Part shown: piece after piece, positions 56,586-63,754 of the stretch
Position numbering within the stretch: position 1 is the first letter of the stretch
How the letters are laid out: each line of letters begins with the position of its first letter
NCBI RefSeq assembly: GCF_022012395.1
Contig: NZ_JAKLTQ010000001.1
Location: 186,001 to 250,000 of the forward strand
Length of the DNA stretch: 64,000 nucleotides
Direction of reading: 5' to 3'
Origin: Arthrobacter hankyongi
GTDB taxonomy: Bacteria; Actinomycetota; Actinomycetes; Actinomycetales; Micrococcaceae
Notes under the pieces: model-generated
The model's input: the letters and a program-made list of their open reading frames with translations, nothing else
Told to the model about the DNA's origin: nothing
Databases searched by the model: none
Program-made: the position numbers and the translations under genes

Positions 56586-56927
56586 TCACCGGTTCAGATT
56601 GACGATGATGTCATTGCCGCGGGTGTCGATCCGGCGCATGCCCACTTTCCCGATGGACGCGGTGGAACCAATCAGCAGGCAGGAGTCGAAGCTGTCCCGG
56701 TAGATGTGGACCGGCCCGAATTCGCCGGCCCAGACGCCGTCAGCGCTTTCGGCGTAGAAACAGAAGTACCGGTTCCCGGTGTTGAGCACGTGGGCCGTAC
56801 TGCCGGGTCCGATGACCCACCAGCCGCGGGTACCCCACTGACCGTCCTGGGCGCAGGCATCCGGGGCGTAGAACATCACCGCCACGTTCACGCTGCTGGA
56901 CGTATTGTTCCGGAACCGGACCTCCAC
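56586..56927 (-). CDS. DUF1036-like protein
   Basis: 113 residues from GTG 56927. Beta-rich. The pattern VRFRNNTSSSVNVAVMFY, GTRGWWVIGPGSTAHVLN and RYFCFYAESADGVWAG resembles DUF1036 proteins. No signal peptide. It starts 6 bp after the stop of the 76-residue gene, so it is the second gene of that transcript. Function unknown; expression is probably tied to the protease cluster through the shared promoter motif. Confidence 0.75.
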   Translation of the reverse strand: MEVRFRNNTSSSVNVAVMFYAPDACAQDGQWGTRGWWVIGPGSTAHVLNTGNRYFCFYAESADGVWAGEFGPVHIYRDSFDSCLLIGSTASIGKVGMRRIDTRGNDIIVNLNR

Positions 56928-56933
56928 TGCCGC

Positions 56934-57164
56934 TCACCGCCCCGGTTCCGGCTCGATACGGACCAGTTCGGCCACCGTCATCGTCGGGATGTCCTCCAGG
57001 CTGCGCGGCGGCAGGGCCGCGGAGCCTGCGCCGTAGGTTTCCTCCGGCCGGTGCTCGGCGTGCTCCGCCTCGCGGCCCATGCGCTGATCCACTTCCAGCG
57101 GGGCGGTGCCGCCAAAAGCCTCCGTGGGATCCGGTTCCCGGGCAGGGCCGTGGTGCTTGGACAT
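56934..57164 (-). CDS. Small hypothetical protein (76 aa)
   Basis: 76 residues from ATG 57164 behind GGAGGAAAAC. Not recognised. Hydrophilic, rich in Glu, Pro, Arg and His, probably disordered, with a C-terminal segment LEDIPTMTVAELVRIEPEPGR. First gene of a two-gene transcript whose promoter carries the phased GTAAC-type heptamers. It could be a regulator, chaperone-like partner or inhibitor of the neighbouring hydrolases; this is speculation. Confidence 0.65.
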   Translation of the reverse strand: MSKHHGPAREPDPTEAFGGTAPLEVDQRMGREAEHAEHRPEETYGAGSAALPPRSLEDIPTMTVAELVRIEPEPGR

Positions 57165-57232
57165 GTTTTCCTCCACAGTGTTCCGGGGCCAGGACGACAA
57201 GTCTGCAGGCGGCGTGCCCGGCTGCCTCTGCC

Positions 57233-57264
57233 ACTGTAGGCACGGCGCGTTATCGGCGCGTTAC
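57233..57264 (-). promoter_or_regulatory. Activator site and -10 box, minus-strand promoter
   Basis: On the minus strand: GTAACGC (57258-57264), 4 bp, ATAACGC (57247-57253), 8 bp, then TACAGT (57233-57238). The same layout occurs at 57285-57316 and 61071-61102. The -10 lies about 69 bp before ATG 57164. Confidence 0.7.
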
Positions 57265-57284
57265 GGCGGCCGGCCGCCGCCCAA

Positions 57285-57316
57285 GTAACGGCGTTGTAAC
57301 GGCAGGCGGCTATACC
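57285..57316 (+). promoter_or_regulatory. Activator site and -10 box before the metzincin gene
   Basis: GTAACGG (57285-57291), 4 bp, GTAACGG (57296-57302), 8 bp, then TATACC (57311-57316), 56 bp before GTG 57373. Heptamers cover the -35 position, as expected for an OmpR- or SARP-type activator. Confidence 0.7.
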
Positions 57317-57372
57317 GGCCATGCGGCACGATGTACCGCTGGTGGAACCCGGACAGACCCAAGGAGACAACG

Positions 57373-58059
57373 GTGAGCGAAAACAACCAGAACCACTTCT
57401 GCACGATCAGGACTGCCGCACCGACCGAGGGCAATACCAAAGCGGCACTGCTCAACGAGTCCCGGTGGGACGTTTCCCGGATCAAGATCGGGTTCCTCGA
57501 AGGTGATCCGGACCTGCGCCGGCGCGTCCTGGCAGTGGCACAGGAATGGACCGGGCCGGACATGGCCAACCTGGAATTTGCCTCGGCCAGCGACACCGAC
57601 GCCGACCTGCGGGTTGCCTTCGAGCAGGGCAATGGATCCTGGTCCTATTTGGGGACCCATGCCCAGCAGATTCCGGTGTCCGAGCCGACGATCAACTTTG
57701 GCTGGCTCACCCCGGATTCGGACGACGACGAACTGCGGCGCGTGGTGCTGCACGAGTTCGGGCACGCCATCGGACTCATCCACGAACACCAGAATCCGCA
57801 GCGGCCGATCCAGTGGAACCGCGCAGCGGTCATCGCCGACCTCTCCGGACCGCCGAACAACTGGTCGCCGGAGACGATCGAGCACAACATCTTCGAGAAA
57901 TACGATCCGGCCGCGCTGACCAGCACGGACACCGACAGCCAGTCCATCATGATGTATCCGATCCCTGCGTCCTGGACCACCGATGGTTTCTCCGCCGGTC
58001 TGAACAGCAATCTGTCCGACACGGACAAGGAATTCATCCGGACCGCCTATCCGTGGTGA
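57373..58059 (+). CDS. Metzincin-type zinc metalloprotease
   Basis: 228 residues from GTG 57373 behind AAGGAGAC. Zinc motif HEFGHAIGLIHEHQNP (His127, His131, His137) and Met-turn SIMMYPI mark an astacin/matrixin-like protease. No signal peptide or propeptide is seen: the mature-like domain starts by about residue 30 (WDVSRIKIGFLEGDPDLRRRVLAVAQEW). It could therefore act in the cytoplasm, leave by another route, or need activation. It leads a transcript with the caspase-like gene (18 bp later). Confidence 0.9.
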   Translation: MSENNQNHFCTIRTAAPTEGNTKAALLNESRWDVSRIKIGFLEGDPDLRRRVLAVAQEWTGPDMANLEFASASDTDADLRVAFEQGNGSWSYLGTHAQQIPVSEPTINFGWLTPDSDDDELRRVVLHEFGHAIGLIHEHQNPQRPIQWNRAAVIADLSGPPNNWSPETIEHNIFEKYDPAALTSTDTDSQSIMMYPIPASWTTDGFSAGLNSNLSDTDKEFIRTAYPW

Positions 58060-58077
58060 GCTGACGGCAGGGCAATC

Positions 58078-60480
58078 ATGGCCGACTACGCGGTGGTGGT
58101 GGGCATCTCCCACTATCCCCAGCTGTCCCTGGACGACCTGCAGGCCCCGGACCGCGATGCCCAGGGCATCTATGACTGGCTGGTGGATCCCGACGGCGGA
58201 AGCGTGCCGCGGGAGAACGTGCGGTTCGTCCGCCAAGCGGACTTCGGACCGCCGGCGCCCGGGGACAGCGTGGAACCGACGGAGGCCCGGGTCCAATCCG
58301 CTTTGAACTGGGTGGCAGACCAGACCCGCAACACGATGGGAGACCGGCTGTACCTGTACTTTTCCGGCCATGGCTTTGCCCCCGTGCTGGAGGAAGGGGC
58401 GATTTTCACCGCGGAGGCGGACCTGGACTGGCCGCACCACGTCTACGCCTATGATTGGCTCCGCTGGTTCCGGCAGGCCCTGGAGTTCCGCGAGTATGTC
58501 CTCTGGATGGACTGCTGCATGAACTTCCAGCGGACCGTTCCAGTCAACAAAGTGGAGCGCCGCCCGGTGACCGGCACCGGTGTGCCCGGACCAGTGTTCG
58601 TGGGCATCGCGGCACAGACCAAGAGCGCCTTGGAATACACCATGGACGACGGCAACGTGCACGGGGTGTTCAGCTGGACCCTGCTGAAAGGCCTTCGGGG
58701 GGCAGCCGCCAACGACCGTGGCCGGATCACCGGCGAAAGCCTCAAGTCCTTCCTGCACGGCGCCATGCCGGAATTCCTGCCGGACAGCGCAAAGGCGGCG
58801 TCGGCCGTGGACCTGTACCCGTTCATCCGGACGGATGACGGCATCTTGTTCAAAAAGCTGTCCCAACGTCCCACGTTCAATACCGCGCTCAGCTTCCCGG
58901 CCGGCGCCGCGGGCAAGGAACTCAAGATCTGGACCGGCCGGCCGCATGCCGCCGTCGTATCCGAAACCCTGGCCTCCGACCGCTGGGCCGGGACGCTGGT
59001 GCGCGGTCTCTACGTCGCGGAGGTCCCCGGACTCGGGCTGCGCCAGGGCTTCCAGGTTTCCGGTGCCGGGGACGTGCGCGCGGACATTACGTCCGGCGGC
59101 CCGCAGGTCCGGCCCCCTGACCCGGCGGCGCTGTACCGGATCGAGGTCATCGCCGAAAATCCGGCCGCGGCCATCCTGGTCACCGATTACACGCTGAGCC
59201 CGGTCTTGTCCGACACCGGCACGTTGAAGGAACTGGACATGCCCGGGGTCTACAAGATCCGGGTCGAGTTTGGCCGCGATATCAACGCCGTGCGGGAGCA
59301 GGTCGTGCTGCTTGACCGCGACATGTCCAATCCCGCGACGGCCGCGCCCCGGCTGGCATCTCCGGCCCCGATCCCCGGCAGCGCCTTCTCCCGCGACGTC
59401 CACGTCGGCCCGTTCCTGGATGCGGCCCGGCGCCAAGGCACGTTCAAGGAGCCGGTCGCCGGCAATGCCGCCATATCGGTGCTGGCCCGTTACCGGCAGG
59501 CAGACATCGTTCCCGCGGCGGATACTCCGGAGCATCCGCTGGCCGGACTCGAACTGCTGGACGGTTCGGGCGGGACCATCGCCACGCTGGTCGAGGGCAG
59601 CAGCCTTGAGGGCGCGGGTTCTACGGACCCGCAGGCCGTCTGGGAGCAGGAGGTCCCGCCCGGCGTCTACTTCCTGCGCGCCAACCTCGCCGGCGGCCGC
59701 CTGATCGACGGCACCGTGATCGCCAGTCCCGGCTGGGTCACCCAACTGGCCCTGCAGCGCTCGCCTGCCGGCCCCGGGGACGGGACCGGCCCTTCGCCGA
59801 TCGACGACGCCGCCATCTTCATCCGCCCGGCGGGAGGGGAATCGAGGCCGTGGAAGGAGGACAAAGTCATTGAGGGTGCCCGGATCGGGCTCGCCCAAGG
59901 CCGCAACCCGCTGGCACTGGGCCGGGGCACCGAACTGCAGCGGCTGCTGCTCCAGGAGTACGAGGACCCGGTTGCCGGCATCCTCGGCTGCCACCTGCTG
60001 CTGCGTGCCGCCGACTCCTCCTCCGGCCTCCGGCCGGAGGAGGCGCAGCTGCTGGACGCGGCCGTGGCCCGGCTCCGCACGACGCTGGGGCATGGCCATC
60101 CGGACGTGGAAGCCCTGTCCCTGCGCTGCGCCGACGCGTCGCTGCGCCGGGTGGATCCGATCGCGGCACCGCCGGTCTTCGAAGCTGGCTGGAAGCTGCT
60201 CATCGAAGCCAGCTATGCCAATCCGGCCCTGGTCCCGATCCAGCTCTGGCAACAGGTACACGCCGGCGCCTGCTTCGGCGCGTACTTCGCCTGGTCCGCC
60301 GACCAGGCATCCATGGAGAGCCACGGCCGCCAGCTGCTGCAATGGCTGGCCGGTGCCCGGCGGGCCGCCGGTGGACAGCTCTCGGACGAGGCCCGGTCCG
60401 CCGCGCTGGTCCAACTCATTCCGGCAGCCGCGCTGGAGGAGCTGTGGCAGGACCGGCCCGGCATCCTGCCCGTCCCATGA
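58078..60480 (+). CDS. Caspase-like protease (peptidase C14) with C-terminal extension
   Basis: 800 residues, ATG 58078. Residues 1-260 are a caspase/metacaspase-type p20 domain: YAVVVGISHYPQLS, LYLYFSGHGF (His98) and YVLWMDCCMNF (Asp145, Cys146, Cys147). The usual DCCHSG is changed to DCCMNF, so the dyad is kept but the loop differs. Residues 270-600 hold Ig-like beta repeats, and 600-800 a helical region. No signal peptide. The next gene overlaps its stop by 4 bp. A metacaspase beside a metzincin suggests a proteolytic cascade; roles in stress, cell death or phage defence are inferred from the family. Confidence 0.85.
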   Translation: MADYAVVVGISHYPQLSLDDLQAPDRDAQGIYDWLVDPDGGSVPRENVRFVRQADFGPPAPGDSVEPTEARVQSALNWVADQTRNTMGDRLYLYFSGHGFAPVLEEGAIFTAEADLDWPHHVYAYDWLRWFRQALEFREYVLWMDCCMNFQRTVPVNKVERRPVTGTGVPGPVFVGIAAQTKSALEYTMDDGNVHGVFSWTLLKGLRGAAANDRGRITGESLKSFLHGAMPEFLPDSAKAASAVDLYPFIRTDDGILFKKLSQRPTFNTALSFPAGAAGKELKIWTGRPHAAVVSETLASDRWAGTLVRGLYVAEVPGLGLRQGFQVSGAGDVRADITSGGPQVRPPDPAALYRIEVIAENPAAAILVTDYTLSPVLSDTGTLKELDMPGVYKIRVEFGRDINAVREQVVLLDRDMSNPATAAPRLASPAPIPGSAFSRDVHVGPFLDAARRQGTFKEPVAGNAAISVLARYRQADIVPAADTPEHPLAGLELLDGSGGTIATLVEGSSLEGAGSTDPQAVWEQEVPPGVYFLRANLAGGRLIDGTVIASPGWVTQLALQRSPAGPGDGTGPSPIDDAAIFIRPAGGESRPWKEDKVIEGARIGLAQGRNPLALGRGTELQRLLLQEYEDPVAGILGCHLLLRAADSSSGLRPEEAQLLDAAVARLRTTLGHGHPDVEALSLRCADASLRRVDPIAAPPVFEAGWKLLIEASYANPALVPIQLWQQVHAGACFGAYFAWSADQASMESHGRQLLQWLAGARRAAGGQLSDEARSAALVQLIPAAALEELWQDRPGILPVP

Positions 60481-61031
60481 CTGCATCCGGGACGTTCTTC
60501 GAGTATCCGGTCGCCGGGGAACTGGCCGTCTCCTTCCAGCGCTATCCCTATCCCGAGACCGGCCGGCTGAACGCACTGCCCACCAGCCTGGGGGCGCTGC
60601 CGGTCTGCTCCACCGCACCCGGCAGGATCCTGCTCCCCTGCCCGGCCGGCGAGGCATTCTGGATCGGGTTCCTGCCGGCTGCCGGGGCGGCGCCGGCCGC
60701 CGTCGGCCTCCTTGCCGTCACCGGTTCCGGGGACGGGATCGATGCCGTCTCCGGACGGGCGGCCGCACCGGGCGCACCGGATACCTGGTTCCAGGTACCG
60801 CCACGGCGGCAGCTGGAGGGCATCCACCGGCCCGACGGCGGCTGGTGGGCGCTGGCGCGGACCGCCGCGGCGGAGGCCCCGGCCTGCAGCCGGCTGCAGC
60901 TGTGCATCCGCCGGCCCGCCGCCCCGCTGGTGCTAGAGATCGTGCTCACCGACGAACGGGAATTCGAAGCGTCCTGCGGCACGCCGGTCCCGGAACCGGG
61001 CCCGGGCTACGGCGGCTGGCGGCTGCCGTAA
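60477..61031 (+). CDS. Hypothetical protein coupled to the caspase-like gene (184 aa)
   Basis: 184 residues from ATG 60477, overlapping the upstream stop (ATGA). Not recognised. Pro/Gly/Ala-rich, mostly beta-like, no membrane segment; patterns YPYPETGRLNALPTSLGALP and DTWFQVPPRRQLEGIHRPDGGWWALAR. Tight coupling implies it works with or on the caspase-like protein, for instance as a subunit, substrate or inhibitor. Confidence 0.7.
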   Translation: MTASGTFFEYPVAGELAVSFQRYPYPETGRLNALPTSLGALPVCSTAPGRILLPCPAGEAFWIGFLPAAGAAPAAVGLLAVTGSGDGIDAVSGRAAAPGAPDTWFQVPPRRQLEGIHRPDGGWWALARTAAAEAPACSRLQLCIRRPAAPLVLEIVLTDEREFEASCGTPVPEPGPGYGGWRLP

Positions 61032-61070
61032 GACCCCGCAACGGCTGCAGGTGTCCCGTCCAGGTTTCCG

Positions 61071-61102
61071 GTAACAGCCCAGTAACGGCCGTCCGCTACC
61101 TT
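61071..61102 (+). promoter_or_regulatory. Activator site and -10 box before the patatin gene
   Basis: GTAACAG (61071-61077), 4 bp, GTAACGG (61082-61088), 8 bp, then TACCTT (61097-61102), 41 bp before GTG 61144. Same architecture as the two promoters at 57.2-57.3 kb. Confidence 0.7.
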
Positions 61103-61143
61103 CGCCCCATTCACCTAGGTAGATAATCCGAAAGGACGGTGTC

Positions 61144-62277
61144 GTGTCCTACCGCGAACGGGCCGGCTCCCCCGGCCCCAAGAAACTGCTGGCGCTGGAC
61201 GGCGGCGGTATCCGGGGCGTCCTTTCGCTCGAAGTCCTCGCCCAGATCGAGCGGACCCTGCGCGCCGAACTTCGCCACGGGGAAGACCGCGGTGAGGACT
61301 TCGTGCTCGCCGACTACTTCGATTACATCGCCGGCACCAGCACCGGGGCGATCATTGCCGCCGGGCTGTCCTTGGGCTGGCCGGTGGAACGATTGCGCAG
61401 GCTATACGCCCTGAACGGCGAGGAAATGTTCGACAAGGCACTGCTGCTGCGCCGCTACCGGTACAAGTACGACAGCAGCCGGCTGGCCGCCATGCTGCAG
61501 CGCGAATTCGGTGCTGCCACCACCTTGGGCGGAGATCAGCTGCAGACCCTGCTGATGATGGTGCTGCGCAACGCCACCACCGACTCGCCGTGGCCGCTGA
61601 GCAACAACCCGAGGGCCAAATTCAACACGCCCCAACGCTCCGACAACAACCTGGACCTGCCGCTGTGGCAGCTGGTCCGGGCCAGCACGGCGGCACCGGT
61701 GTATTTCCCGCCCGAGATCGTGACCGTGGGAGACCAGGAGTTCGTCTTCGTCGATGGCGGGCTGACCATGTACAACAACCCTGCCTTCCAGCTGTTCCTC
61801 ATGGCCACCTTGGATGCCTACGGTCTCGGATGGGAAACCGGCGAAGGGAAGCTGCTGCTGGTCTCGGTGGGCACCGGTGCCGCGCCCCACGCAAACGCCT
61901 ACCTGGCTCCCGGAGACATGAACCTGCTCTACAACGCTTCCTCCGTGCCGGGGGCGCTGATGTATGCGGCCGCAACCGAGCAGGACCTCTTGTGCAGGAT
62001 CTTCGGCCGCTGCCGCCACGGTGCCGCCGTCGACCGTGAGATCGGCGACCTCCGGCATGACCGCGGACTGATGGACCGGCGGCTCTTCAGTTACGTGCGC
62101 TACAACGCCGACCTGTCCCGGGCCGGGCTCGATGAGCTCGGACTGCCCGACGTCGATCCGCAGTCGGCGCAGCGGATGGACTCCGTGGAGCACATCGGCG
62201 ATCTCCAGCGGATCGGCATGTCCTTGGCCCGCGATGTGGAGGCCGCCCATTTCGAGGGATTCCTGGACCACCAGTAG
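61144..62277 (+). CDS. Patatin-like phospholipase
   Basis: 377 residues from GTG 61144 behind GAAAGGACGG. Lipid acyl hydrolase with Ser-Asp dyad: oxyanion loop DGGGIRG (residues 19-25), nucleophile Ser66 in GTSTG, and Asp204 in VDGGLTMYNNP. No signal peptide, so it probably acts on the inner face of the membrane. Patatins of this type (CapV-like) occur in bacterial defence operons, but no nucleotide cyclase of that kind is adjacent. Seven bp before the glycosyltransferase gene. Confidence 0.93.
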   Translation: MSYRERAGSPGPKKLLALDGGGIRGVLSLEVLAQIERTLRAELRHGEDRGEDFVLADYFDYIAGTSTGAIIAAGLSLGWPVERLRRLYALNGEEMFDKALLLRRYRYKYDSSRLAAMLQREFGAATTLGGDQLQTLLMMVLRNATTDSPWPLSNNPRAKFNTPQRSDNNLDLPLWQLVRASTAAPVYFPPEIVTVGDQEFVFVDGGLTMYNNPAFQLFLMATLDAYGLGWETGEGKLLLVSVGTGAAPHANAYLAPGDMNLLYNASSVPGALMYAAATEQDLLCRIFGRCRHGAAVDREIGDLRHDRGLMDRRLFSYVRYNADLSRAGLDELGLPDVDPQSAQRMDSVEHIGDLQRIGMSLARDVEAAHFEGFLDHQ

Positions 62278-62284
62278 ATCTCCC

Positions 62285-63754
62285 ATGAAGCTCAGACGGG
62301 AAACCACGCATCGACCGTTCGTACCGTCCGGGCGGTGCGGCCAACCCTCCTGGCGGCCGGGGTTTGCCTCGGTGCTCACGCCCTACCTGCTCTTCCTGCT
62401 GCTGGGCTGGTGGACCTGGACGCAGTTCTCCCGGGCCAGCAGCATCAACGCCTACATCGCGATCGCCTGGACCCTGCCGACCTTCACCTCGGTCCTGGGG
62501 TTATACGGCGGCTACTGCACCGCCCGCCGCATGCGGAGCGAACGACGGCGGCAGGAACCTACGTCCCTGCCCGTCGTCGGCACCGATCAGCTTCTGGTGG
62601 TCATGCCCACCATTGGACGGGACGACACACTGCCTGCCGTGGAGCGGGTGATCGAGTCGATGCGGGTGTTCCTCCCCGCCTGCTTCACGAAGCTGCGCAT
62701 CGACGTCGTGATCGAGGAAGAATGCCCTGCCCGGCGCAGGATCGAGGCCCTGGCGGAGGGCACGGCCGGACTGCGGGTGGTGGTGGTGCCCCGCGGCTTC
62801 CGCACGCCCCACGGCACCCGGTTCAAGGCCAGGGCCAACGAATACGCCAACCGGCTCCGTGCGGCCGAGGGTGAGGCGCGCGAGGATGTCTGGGTCCTGC
62901 ACATGGATGACGATACCGGCGTCGGCAGCGACACCGCCCGGGAACTGGCCAGGTTCATCCTGGCGCAGCGGCAGGCAGGCGACGACGCCCTGGATCTTTG
63001 CCAAGGCGTGCTGTCCTATCCACGCGAACTGGCCGCCAACCGGCTGATCTGGCTCGCCGACGCGATCCGGCCCGGCTGCGACCTCGGGCTCTTTGCGGCC
63101 ACGACGGGACGCGGCTCGCCCCGCGCCGGACTGCACGGGGAACTGCTTTTGGTCCGGGCATCGGTCGAGGCAGCCATCGGATGGGACTTCGGCCCGCGGA
63201 CCCTCGTGGAGGACGCCCAGTTTGCCCTGCACTTTTGCGAGCGCTACCCGGGACGCAGCGGCTGGATTCCCGGTCTCTCGTACGGTGCCTCACCGGCGAC
63301 CGCCTCGGACTTCATGCGCCAGCGGGAACGCTGGGTCTGGGGACTGCTCGAACTCATGGCCGGCCGGACCGGCGTCCGACAGGCCGCGTGCCGGCGTCAT
63401 CGGCTGCTCATGCTGCATAACACGGTGGTGTGGTCCTGCGCCCCGCTGGGCCATCCGGTCTTCGTACTGATGCTCTGTGCGCTCCTGCAGGACTACCAAA
63501 CAGCACCTATCGTGCCGGCCTTGGTTCCGCTGTGGGGATTGAATGTCGCATTCTGCATCTGGCTTTATTGGGAAGGCCTGAAGCTCAACGCGCTCGCATC
63601 GGCCCGGGCATCGCGGCTGTGGTGGGAACCCGTATGCCTGTTGTTGCTGACTCCGCTGTTTTCCCTCTGGGAGATGGTGGGGATCGCCCGAGGTGTGTGG
63701 CGGTTCGCGGCCAGCGGCGAACCCCGCTTCACCGTCATCACCAAGCCGGTTTGA
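62285..63754 (+). CDS. Membrane glycosyltransferase, family 2 (egghead-like)
   Basis: 489 residues from ATG 62285. Two N-terminal membrane helices, a GT-A catalytic domain (VVMPTIGRDDTLPAVERVI, HMDDDTGVGSD with Asp208-210, VEDAQFALHF, RQRERWVWGLLE) and several C-terminal helices. The layout matches processive membrane GT2 enzymes related to egghead-type mannosyltransferases. Co-transcribed with the patatin gene, which suggests glycolipid making or remodelling. The acceptor is unknown. Confidence 0.88.
   Translation: MKLRRETTHRPFVPSGRCGQPSWRPGFASVLTPYLLFLLLGWWTWTQFSRASSINAYIAIAWTLPTFTSVLGLYGGYCTARRMRSERRRQEPTSLPVVGTDQLLVVMPTIGRDDTLPAVERVIESMRVFLPACFTKLRIDVVIEEECPARRRIEALAEGTAGLRVVVVPRGFRTPHGTRFKARANEYANRLRAAEGEAREDVWVLHMDDDTGVGSDTARELARFILAQRQAGDDALDLCQGVLSYPRELAANRLIWLADAIRPGCDLGLFAATTGRGSPRAGLHGELLLVRASVEAAIGWDFGPRTLVEDAQFALHFCERYPGRSGWIPGLSYGASPATASDFMRQRERWVWGLLELMAGRTGVRQAACRRHRLLMLHNTVVWSCAPLGHPVFVLMLCALLQDYQTAPIVPALVPLWGLNVAFCIWLYWEGLKLNALASARASRLWWEPVCLLLLTPLFSLWEMVGIARGVWRFAASGEPRFTVITKPV

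What the first reader, a model, noticed from the sequence alone, without database searches (positions are those of the whole stretch)
56586..63754. Possible new effector system: metzincin, caspase-like protease, coupled partner, patatin and membrane GT2
Two proteases of different classes, a phospholipase and a membrane glycosyltransferase lie together without signal peptides, and they share promoter elements. Caspase-like and patatin proteins are known effectors in bacterial stress and anti-phage systems, but I do not recognise this set as a described system. The caspase loop is atypical (DCCMNF), and a 184-residue protein is translationally coupled to it. A controlled self-attack, developmental lysis or envelope remodelling pathway is possible.
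Basis: inference. Interest (0 to 1): 0.65.

Follow-up and report, generated by a model that had tools for sequence, protein, structure and literature searches.

The report
Caspase paired with a latent metalloprotease
Three neighbouring genes (a zinc protease that looks locked by its own cysteine, a caspase-like protease that looks able to unlock it, and a small partner protein) travel together between distant bacteria, which suggests a bacterial version of a caspase-triggered protease cascade, so far untested.

Summary
The genes are real, but the five are not one system. The conserved unit is three genes, M-C-D: metzincin 57373-58059, caspase-like 58078-60480, 184-aa partner 60477-61031. M sits directly upstream of C in 13 of 13 other loci; D follows in 11 of 13. 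Hosts: seven of ten genomes of the genus (own included), three other actinobacteria, plasmids of Sinorhizobium terangae and Cupriavidus campinensis. Patatin and GT2 are near none of them. M is closest to myroilysin, a cysteine-switch zymogen; all 14 M proteins keep an N-terminal Cys and a Lys/Arg where myroilysin is cut, and C keeps the dyad and the two S1 Asp positions of metacaspases. I infer that C unlocks M after Lys23, as canu caspases unlock a pro-nuclease; in two genomes M-C-D directly follows a canu-like gene run. The shared-promoter claim holds: a SARP-type repeat element occurs 8 times in ten genomes: 6 before M, 1 before this patatin, 1 before a hydrolase-caspase pair (the pattern was derived from the first seven). 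The patatin may be a locally recruited member of the regulon. Function is untested.

The parts
57285..57313 (+). promoter element of the module: direct repeat GTAACGG-N4-GTAACGG (11-bp register) followed by a -10-like CTATAC
   Evidence: SARP-type spacing as stated in a passage of PMC10936776
57373..58059 (+). M: myroilysin-like metzincin (M12A), 228 aa, no signal peptide by reading; HEFGHAIGLIHE (His127/131/137, Glu138), Met-turn SIMMYP
57373..57441 (+). predicted 23-residue pro-segment of M: sole Cys10 (codon 57400-57402), predicted activation cut after Lys23 (codon 57439-57441)
   Evidence: Cys 14 of 14, Lys/Arg23 14 of 14; Lys23 aligns with position 34 (Arg) of the 5czw chain, Ala24 with the Gly after it
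58078..60480 (+). C: 800-aa protein, caspase-like domain (about 1-245), predicted beta-rich middle, helical C-terminal region
   Evidence: (low-confidence model)
58369..58371 (+). catalytic His98 of C
   Evidence: invariant 14 of 14
58510..58518 (+). Asp145-Cys146-Cys147; Cys147 is the predicted nucleophile
   Evidence: D145 and C147 14 of 14, C146 12 of 14
59845..60372 (+). helical C-terminal region of C, related to part of a separate gene in rhizobial caspase loci
60477..61031 (+). D: 184-aa partner, overlaps C by 4 nt; conserved SFQR and C-terminal LP
61071..61099 (+). second copy of the promoter element, upstream of the patatin
61144..62277 (+). patatin-like phospholipase, 377 aa; not part of the conserved module but carries its promoter element
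62285..63754 (+). membrane GT2 glycosyltransferase, 489 aa; starts 7 nt after the patatin stop, not part of the conserved module

Best explanation
M-C-D is a mobile three-gene conflict module that works as a two-step protease cascade. M is made in the cytosol as a latent zinc protease, with Cys10 of a 23-residue pro-segment blocking the zinc. C, a metacaspase-like protease with beta-rich and helical regions behind its catalytic domain, is kept inactive in a complex with D. A trigger (an invader or stress, unknown) activates C, which cuts M after the invariant Lys/Arg23; the pro-segment leaves and M degrades cytosolic proteins, stopping growth or killing the cell. Shown: the conserved unit, the gene coupling, intact active-site residues, the invariant Cys and Lys/Arg, the promoter element. 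Inferred: that Cys10 is the switch, that C cuts M, that D holds C, and that the outcome is abortive defence.
For: M directly upstream of C in 13 of 13 other loci, D in 11 of 13. Among 394 class genomes only the own M scores above 133 bits. M and C distances correlate across 13 loci (r 0.93, L023 left out as a near-duplicate, no null computed; C-D 0.84 and M-D 0.80 over 11). M matches myroilysin at 2e-52, Lys23 on Arg34 of the 5czw chain, Ala24 on the Gly after it; passages state that myroilysin uses a cysteine switch and that its mature N-terminus is Gly. Cys 14 of 14 and the only Cys in 12 of 14; Lys/Arg 14 of 14; C keeps Asp27, His98, Asp145, Cys147 14 of 14 (some rows are near-duplicates, so these are not 14 independent cases). 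Asp95 and Asp211 line the putative S1 pocket of TbMCA2, and metacaspases cut after Arg/Lys (passages). Precedent: the canu caspase activates a pro-nuclease, and CanB co-purifies with it (passages). In L017 and L019 M-C-D follows a Tle1-like hydrolase, a caspase, a protein without Pfam match and an LmuA/Avs1a-like MBL protein. Other M12 homologues lie beside a caspase (L077) or a caspase-TIR fusion (L079).
Against: No functional data. The phmmer alignment to myroilysin begins at residue 18, so the Cys10 match rests on position, not on a residue alignment. D is missing beside C in 2 of 13 loci. SCO6992, taken to be AbsR1, an intracellular-looking relative of M, showed no protease activity as an MBP fusion and was called a beta-glucuronidase (passages); latency would explain this, but so would loss of protease function. 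C scores below the EACC1-caspase cut-off, and PADLOC has no match for M or D. Of 13 plasmid loci of M homologues that I opened (of 15 found), 9 have no caspase beside M by annotation or reading, nor does C match any ORF of the 8 class loci. In L077 the M12 gene lacks the basic residue although a caspase is next to it.
Confidence: 0.5

Rival explanations
1. Reverse or parallel order: M is the sensor or first protease and activates C, or both attack targets independently, with D as a shared inhibitor or substrate.
For: Both active sites are intact. D-like long proteins lie beside other proteases: an M12 gene in Kovacikia (L081) and a subtilase in G1137 (L061), so D might belong to M rather than to C.
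Against: The invariant basic residue sits at the zymogen cut site of M, and C has the acidic S1 positions that would read it; D is coupled to C, not to M.
Confidence: 0.2
2. A developmental or stress programme, not defence: the module is switched on by a SARP-type regulator during starvation or differentiation to recycle proteins or lyse sibling cells.
For: SARP-type promoter element; a BTAD regulator gene about 5.7 kb upstream of M in L058; the M-related SCO6992 promotes antibiotic production.
Against: Patchy distribution across phyla and on plasmids, neighbourhood with canu-like genes and, for M homologues, with caspase-TIR.
Confidence: 0.18
3. M is not a protease; the fold has been reused, as proposed for SCO6992/AbsR1 (beta-glucuronidase), and C acts alone.
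For: SCO6992 result; M scores 137 bits to NF050131 (AbsR1), though far below its cut-off of 650.
Against: The zinc-binding motif, the Glu after it and the Met-turn are invariant, and M is close to the active protease myroilysin.
Confidence: 0.06
4. One reading: all five genes are one system with phospholipase and GT2 as further effectors.
For: The patatin carries the same promoter element as M, and these are the only two in the genome; the GT2 begins 7 nt after the patatin. A patatin gene also lies about 3.5 kb after an M homologue on a Rufibacter plasmid, without a caspase.
Against: Neither gene occurs in the 13 other M-C loci; the GT2 has no relative at E <= 1e-20 in 38 other genomes; the patatin relatives in G004 and G005 sit beside an nSTAND1-WD40 gene.
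Confidence: 0.06

Closest known systems
canu (caspase-nuclease) anti-phage systems, CanABC
   Same: Caspase-family protease with a further (Ig-like) part, a partner protein, and a separate latent enzyme that the caspase unlocks (passages of PMC12799240)
   Different: The latent enzyme would be a metzincin, not an MBL nuclease, and lies upstream; C keeps an acidic residue (Asp27) where the CanA-like caspases of the same genus have Ser
alpha/beta-hydrolase - caspase pairings (Kaur et al. 2020; rhizobial loci L088-L090)
   Same: The caspase domain of C scores 116-135 bits to theirs by profile; the beta and helical regions of C match part of their separate third gene
   Different: Metzincin in place of the hydrolase, caspase and third protein fused, extra gene D; no VMAP, vWA or MoxR gene identified among the neighbours I scanned (not a dedicated search)
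EACC1-caspase membrane conflict system
   Same: Caspase at the N-terminus with variable C-terminal parts (passage)
   Different: 61 bits against a cut-off of 140; D shows no TM helix by reading
Myroilysin (M12A)
   Same: Catalytic domain, and an N-terminal Cys before the activation bond
   Different: Myroilysin is secreted (abstracts); M has no signal peptide by reading and sits in a caspase operon
CBASS phospholipases and patatin effectors
   Same: Patatin fold; CBASS_lipase 113 bits, PADLOC phospholipase effector 141 bits
   Different: Below the NCBIfam cut-off of 200; no CD-NTase identified among the adjacent genes, which were scanned only in part

Membership tests
Astacin/M12A metzincin (M) | HExxHxxGxxH followed by Glu, and Met-turn | tested here: met
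   invariant in 12 of 12 rows of A3; Pfam Astacin 28.0 bits over cut-off 22.5
Astacin/M12A metzincin (M) | cysteine-switch pro-segment as in myroilysin | tested here: inconclusive
   Cys and Lys/Arg 14 of 14, but the Cys itself lies outside the alignment to 5czw
Metacaspase/paracaspase-type C14B (C) | His-Cys dyad | tested here: met
   H98, C147 14 of 14; PF00656 31.2 bits over cut-off 21.4, found in 11 of 12 rows of A1 at E <= 0.1
Metacaspase/paracaspase-type C14B (C) | acidic S1 residues on helix 1 and two before the catalytic Cys | tested here: met
   D27 and D145 14 of 14; the profile aligns the D27 region with metacaspase-4, -9 and -1 chains (E 2e-4 to 0.03); S1 role from passages
canu | caspase with a linked MBL pro-nuclease | tested here: not met
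   no MBL family among the adjacent window genes scanned; a strong MBL lies directly upstream only in L017 and L019 of the loci listed; L058 has a weakly LmuA-like MBL gene (28.8 bits) about 8 kb away on the other strand
canu | caspase proteolytically activates its partner enzyme | not testable with these tools
   needs a bench test
EACC1-associated caspase | NF047832 score over the curated cut-off | tested here: not met
   61.2 against 140
CBASS phospholipase (patatin) | NF041079 over the cut-off | tested here: not met
   112.9 against 200
CBASS phospholipase (patatin) | a CD-NTase partner gene | tested here: inconclusive
   none among the adjacent genes scanned; not all neighbours were scanned
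SARP-regulated promoter | direct repeats 11 bp apart, the 3' repeat 8 bp from the -10 element | tested here: met
   window M and patatin sites: 11-bp register, 8 nt between heptamer and TATACC/TACCTT, the -10 chosen by reading; other genus sites 8-9; the sigma-70 scan scored no promoter
SARP-regulated promoter | bound by a SARP protein | not tested

The most novel reading that the evidence does not exclude
A caspase-activated pro-metalloprotease cascade operates in bacteria: a metacaspase-like initiator removes a cysteine-switch pro-segment from a cytosolic metzincin executioner, and a dedicated SARP-type regulon arms this cascade together with an alpha/beta-hydrolase-caspase system and a patatin, so that several self-destruct effectors are under one transcriptional command.
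Probability: 0.33. Interest if true: 0.82.

Novelty: new variant of a known kind. Interest (0 to 1): 0.66.

Why it matters
If true, it would be a bacterial two-protease cascade in which the executioner is a latent zinc protease, extending the recent finding that bacterial immune proteases unlock pro-nucleases (PMC12799240, passages), and it makes the step testable at one bond (M Lys23-Ala24). It would also offer an explanation for why SCO6992/AbsR1 showed no protease activity: it may be a zymogen tested without its activator. The promoter element gives a handle on how caspase-class effectors are turned on in actinobacteria.

Tried and rejected
Structure: AlphaFold models of D (pLDDT 55.9, pTM 0.61; 3 sequences) and C (51.1, 0.35; 4 sequences) were too weak. 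Foldseek of D against the PDB gave no match at E <= 0.001; the best (0.03 and up) were mostly Ig-type beta-sandwich proteins; I use the models only for 'beta-rich' and 'helical'. D matches no PDB chain at E <= 5 and no Pfam family with support. Viral contigs: no relative of M or C. Phage records: one caspase-domain hit, not followed. A whole-genome search with PF00656 missed the window's own caspase, though hmmscan finds it, so negative family searches by that route are weak. The weak D hit in M. manitobense lies, by reading, on the frame opposite a chelatase-like gene and was rejected. A regex for SARP genes found nothing and missed the BTAD gene of L058, so it was not sensitive. DUF1036 and the 76-aa gene were dropped as members because among the loci they hit only L014. 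A first promoter pattern with the wrong spacing found nothing. The context of the patatin relative in G017 was not resolved.

Bias and limits: the promoter pattern was derived from the sites before M and the patatin, so seven of its eight hits are not independent; the G001 contig 78 site and the rarity of hits are. Searches scored only 2, 8 and 10 candidates per genome and may have missed relatives of C, D and the helical region. Pseudomonadota were sampled only through plasmid records. L022/L023 and L020/L021 are near-duplicates. L023 was left out of the distance correlation; two of 15 plasmid records with an M homologue (H20, H22) were not opened.
Full report
WHAT IS THERE. The stretch 56586-63754 holds, on the minus strand, a DUF1036 gene (56586-56927) and a 76-aa ORF, and on the plus strand five genes: a metzincin (M, 57373-58059), a caspase-like protein of 800 aa (C, 58078-60480), a 184-aa protein (D, 60477-61031), a patatin (61144-62277) and a membrane GT2 (62285-63754). 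Family scans: M hits Astacin and Matrixin; C hits Peptidase_C14 (31.2 bits, cut-off 21.4) and, below cut-off, the EACC1-associated caspase (61 of 140); patatin 90.6 bits and, below cut-off, CBASS lipase (113 of 200); GT2 70.4 bits; D nothing.

THE CONSERVED UNIT IS M-C-D. C has full-length relatives in 7 of 10 genomes of the genus including the own one (two genomes have two copies), in Pseudonocardia nigra and [Mycobacterium] manitobense, in G698 of the order of P. nigra (2 of 397 genomes matched, P. nigra itself being the other), and on plasmids of Sinorhizobium terangae and Cupriavidus campinensis. That is 13 loci besides the window. 13 of 13 have M immediately upstream on the same strand (gap 4-34 nt, or a 4-nt overlap in L015), and 11 of 13 have D, which overlaps C by 4, 8 or 11 nt or, in L015, lies 1 nt after it. 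D is absent beside C in L012 and L016, and a profile search found no D elsewhere on the L012 plasmid and only a weak, rejected hit in the L016 genome. Clustering the ORFs of 13 loci (window included, L058 not) showed no further family common to all; a gene on the other strand downstream recurs in 5 loci of the genus (a codon filter hid the genes of L013, seen). tblastn found neither patatin nor GT2 in the 12 loci or in L058. The patatin has relatives in 4 of 39 genomes (own included), in G004 about 48 kb from the nearer M-C-D copy; the GT2 in 1 of 39, the own one. In 394 genomes of the class, 18 have an M homologue at 1e-20, but apart from the own one none scores above 133 bits.

M LOOKS LIKE A LATENT PROTEASE. 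In the PDB, M is closest to myroilysin (2e-52 by phmmer; 5.5e-67 by profile). HEFGHxxGLIHE and SIMMYP are invariant in 12 of 12 rows. Passages state that myroilysin, unlike animal astacins, is blocked by a cysteine, has a 37-residue pro-segment, and has Gly at its mature N-terminus. In the alignment M Lys23 lies on position 34 (Arg) of the 5czw chain and M Ala24 on the Gly that follows; the mature chain 5zjk begins, by its own alignment, at that residue. All 14 M proteins have Lys or Arg there, all 14 have the N-terminal Cys, and in 12 of 14 it is the only Cys of the protein (some of the 14 are near-duplicates). In one search, 8 of 11 M12 relatives outside the module also carry an N-terminal Cys by reading; L079, L080 and L083 do not. 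The myroilysin Cys (Cys22, recalled) could not be aligned directly, because the alignment starts after it.

C LOOKS LIKE A BASIC-SPECIFIC CASPASE RELATIVE. His98, Asp145, Cys147 and Asp27 are invariant in 14 of 14; Cys146 is Ala in L013 and L058. In TbMCA2 the putative S1 pocket is made of Cys92, Asp95, Ser156 and Asp211, MALT1 has Asp365 and Asp462 there, and metacaspases and MALT1 cut after basic residues (passages). The profile aligns the Asp27 region with the matching region of metacaspases. CanA-like caspases in the same genus (L017, L019) and the Bradyrhizobium caspase L077 have Ser at the Asp27 position. In L077, whose M12 neighbour has Phe at the Lys23 position, both features are missing; this is one case only, and it also shows that the basic cut site is not general to caspase-M12 pairs. 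The beta and helical regions of C match part of the separate gene after the caspase in S. mexicanum L087 (1e-22), Mesorhizobium L088 (2e-13), L089 (1e-8) and L090 (1e-5); with the helical region alone the values are 9e-16, 6e-5, 1e-3 and 7e-3 (E-values for a set of 2016 sequences). In 326 genomes of the phylum only the own genome matched the helical region, with ten candidates scored per genome.

D. D is a fast-evolving protein (48% mean column identity), beta-rich in a weak model. Longer proteins with a D-like region (E 4e-10 and 2.5e-7 in the same small set) lie beside a subtilase in G1137 and immediately before an M12 gene in the cyanobacterium Kovacikia; in 396 genomes of the phylum only the own genome and G1137 matched the D profile, eight candidates scored per genome. 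D-type proteins may thus be partners of proteases of several classes. Its coupling to C suggests a complex with C, as reported for CanB with CanA; this is inference.

CONTEXT. In G003 and G009 (L019, L017) M-C-D is the tail of a close-packed gene run: Tle1-like hydrolase (248 bits), caspase (47.9 bits), a protein without Pfam match, an MBL protein scoring 200-212 bits to PADLOC's LmuA model and about 140 to Avs1a, then M, C, D. The caspase - third protein - MBL part has the gene order of canu (passages of PMC12799240). I opened 13 of the 15 plasmid records with an M homologue: two are M-C loci (L012, L013), L077 has a caspase and a trypsin-like protein next to M12, L079 a caspase-TIR fusion, and 9 show no caspase beside M12 by annotation or reading. 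AbsR1-type M homologues of unnamed class genomes (probably Streptomyces) have no C-like gene in the 8 stretches scanned.

PROMOTER ELEMENT. Upstream of M and of the patatin lie GTAACRG repeats in an 11-bp register followed by a -10-like box at the same distance. SARP promoters are described as having direct repeats 11 or 22 bp apart with the 3' repeat 8 bp from the -10 element (passage of PMC10936776). The pattern GTAAYN6GTAACVN{8,9}CTAY occurs 8 times in ten genomes of the genus; the reversed control gives 0. Six are before M (own, G001, G004 twice, G005 twice), one before the window's patatin, and one, on contig 78 of G001, before an alpha/beta-hydrolase gene followed at once by a caspase-NTPase gene whose Peptidase_C14 score (20.7) is just under the cut-off of 21.4. 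Only this last site was not used to derive the pattern. The three other M-C-D loci of the genus have, by reading, a decayed copy (L018) or none (L017, L019, where M-C-D is the tail of a gene run); the five loci outside the genus show no GTAACRG within 250 nt, a narrower test than the full pattern. A sigma-70 consensus scan of the region found nothing. L058 has a BTAD regulator gene about 5.7 kb upstream of M.

LITERATURE. I saw no description of a caspase-metzincin-D module in the listings of searches (one search listed 8 of 61 papers) or in the passages read; subscription papers and most preprints are not held. Kaur et al. 2020 (passages) describe caspase/alpha-beta-hydrolase pairs and rare metallopeptidase domains in such systems, so the theme is known and the exact set is, as far as I could see, not. 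SCO6992 (taken to be AbsR1), an M relative, showed no protease activity as an MBP fusion and was called a beta-glucuronidase (passages): this speaks against M as a protease unless it too is latent.

VERDICT. Real and conserved: M-C-D. Mechanism: caspase-activated pro-metzincin, confidence 0.5. Patatin: probably a recruited member of the same regulon in this strain. GT2: a passenger or a patatin-linked gene, unknown.

Noticed in passing
L107:4580-7997 (G001 contig 78): The same promoter element precedes an alpha/beta-hydrolase gene and an 820+ aa caspase-NTPase gene, pointing to a small caspase-effector regulon in the genus.
   Followed up: partly
L017:3270-7822 and L019:3508-8057: Canu-like gene run (Tle1-like hydrolase, caspase, unmatched protein, LmuA/Avs1a-like MBL) directly upstream of M-C-D in two genomes.
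   Followed up: partly
L061:8232-10537 (G1137): A D-like 350-aa protein next to a subtilase, with (by reading) TPR-like and sigma-factor-like genes near: another protease with a D-type partner.
   Followed up: partly
L081:4838-6931 (Kovacikia plasmid): A D-like 321-aa gene directly before an M12 gene that looks split into two frames.
   Followed up: no
L079:6001-8345 (Thiodictyon plasmid): M12 peptidase (apparently without the pro-segment) next to a caspase-TIR fusion protein.
   Followed up: no
L078:5923-12090 (Rufibacter plasmid): An M12 (matrixin-annotated) gene with a patatin gene about 3.5 kb downstream and no caspase annotated between them.
   Followed up: no
L108:7438-12906 (G004) and L109:6250-11717 (G005): Close patatin relatives lie just downstream of an nSTAND1-WD40 gene with a TIR-like N-terminus by reading (in G005 it is split into two ORFs).
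   Followed up: partly
L027:1267-2352, L031:1366-2463, L070:8166-9209 (AbsR1-type proteins): The NCBIfam model named beta-glucuronidase AbsR1 covers metzincins with an N-terminal Tyr-Cys (L027 over the cut-off, L031 below it); the no-protease result for SCO6992 may reflect zymogen latency.
   Followed up: partly
window:54024-56141: M1 aminopeptidase with an InhA-like MAM domain upstream of the region; also present in L014 (79% identity).
   Followed up: no
L082:1114-5600 (Paenibacillus plasmid): An M12 gene beside two S8 peptidases and a trypsin-like protease, with immunity-protein genes near.
   Followed up: no
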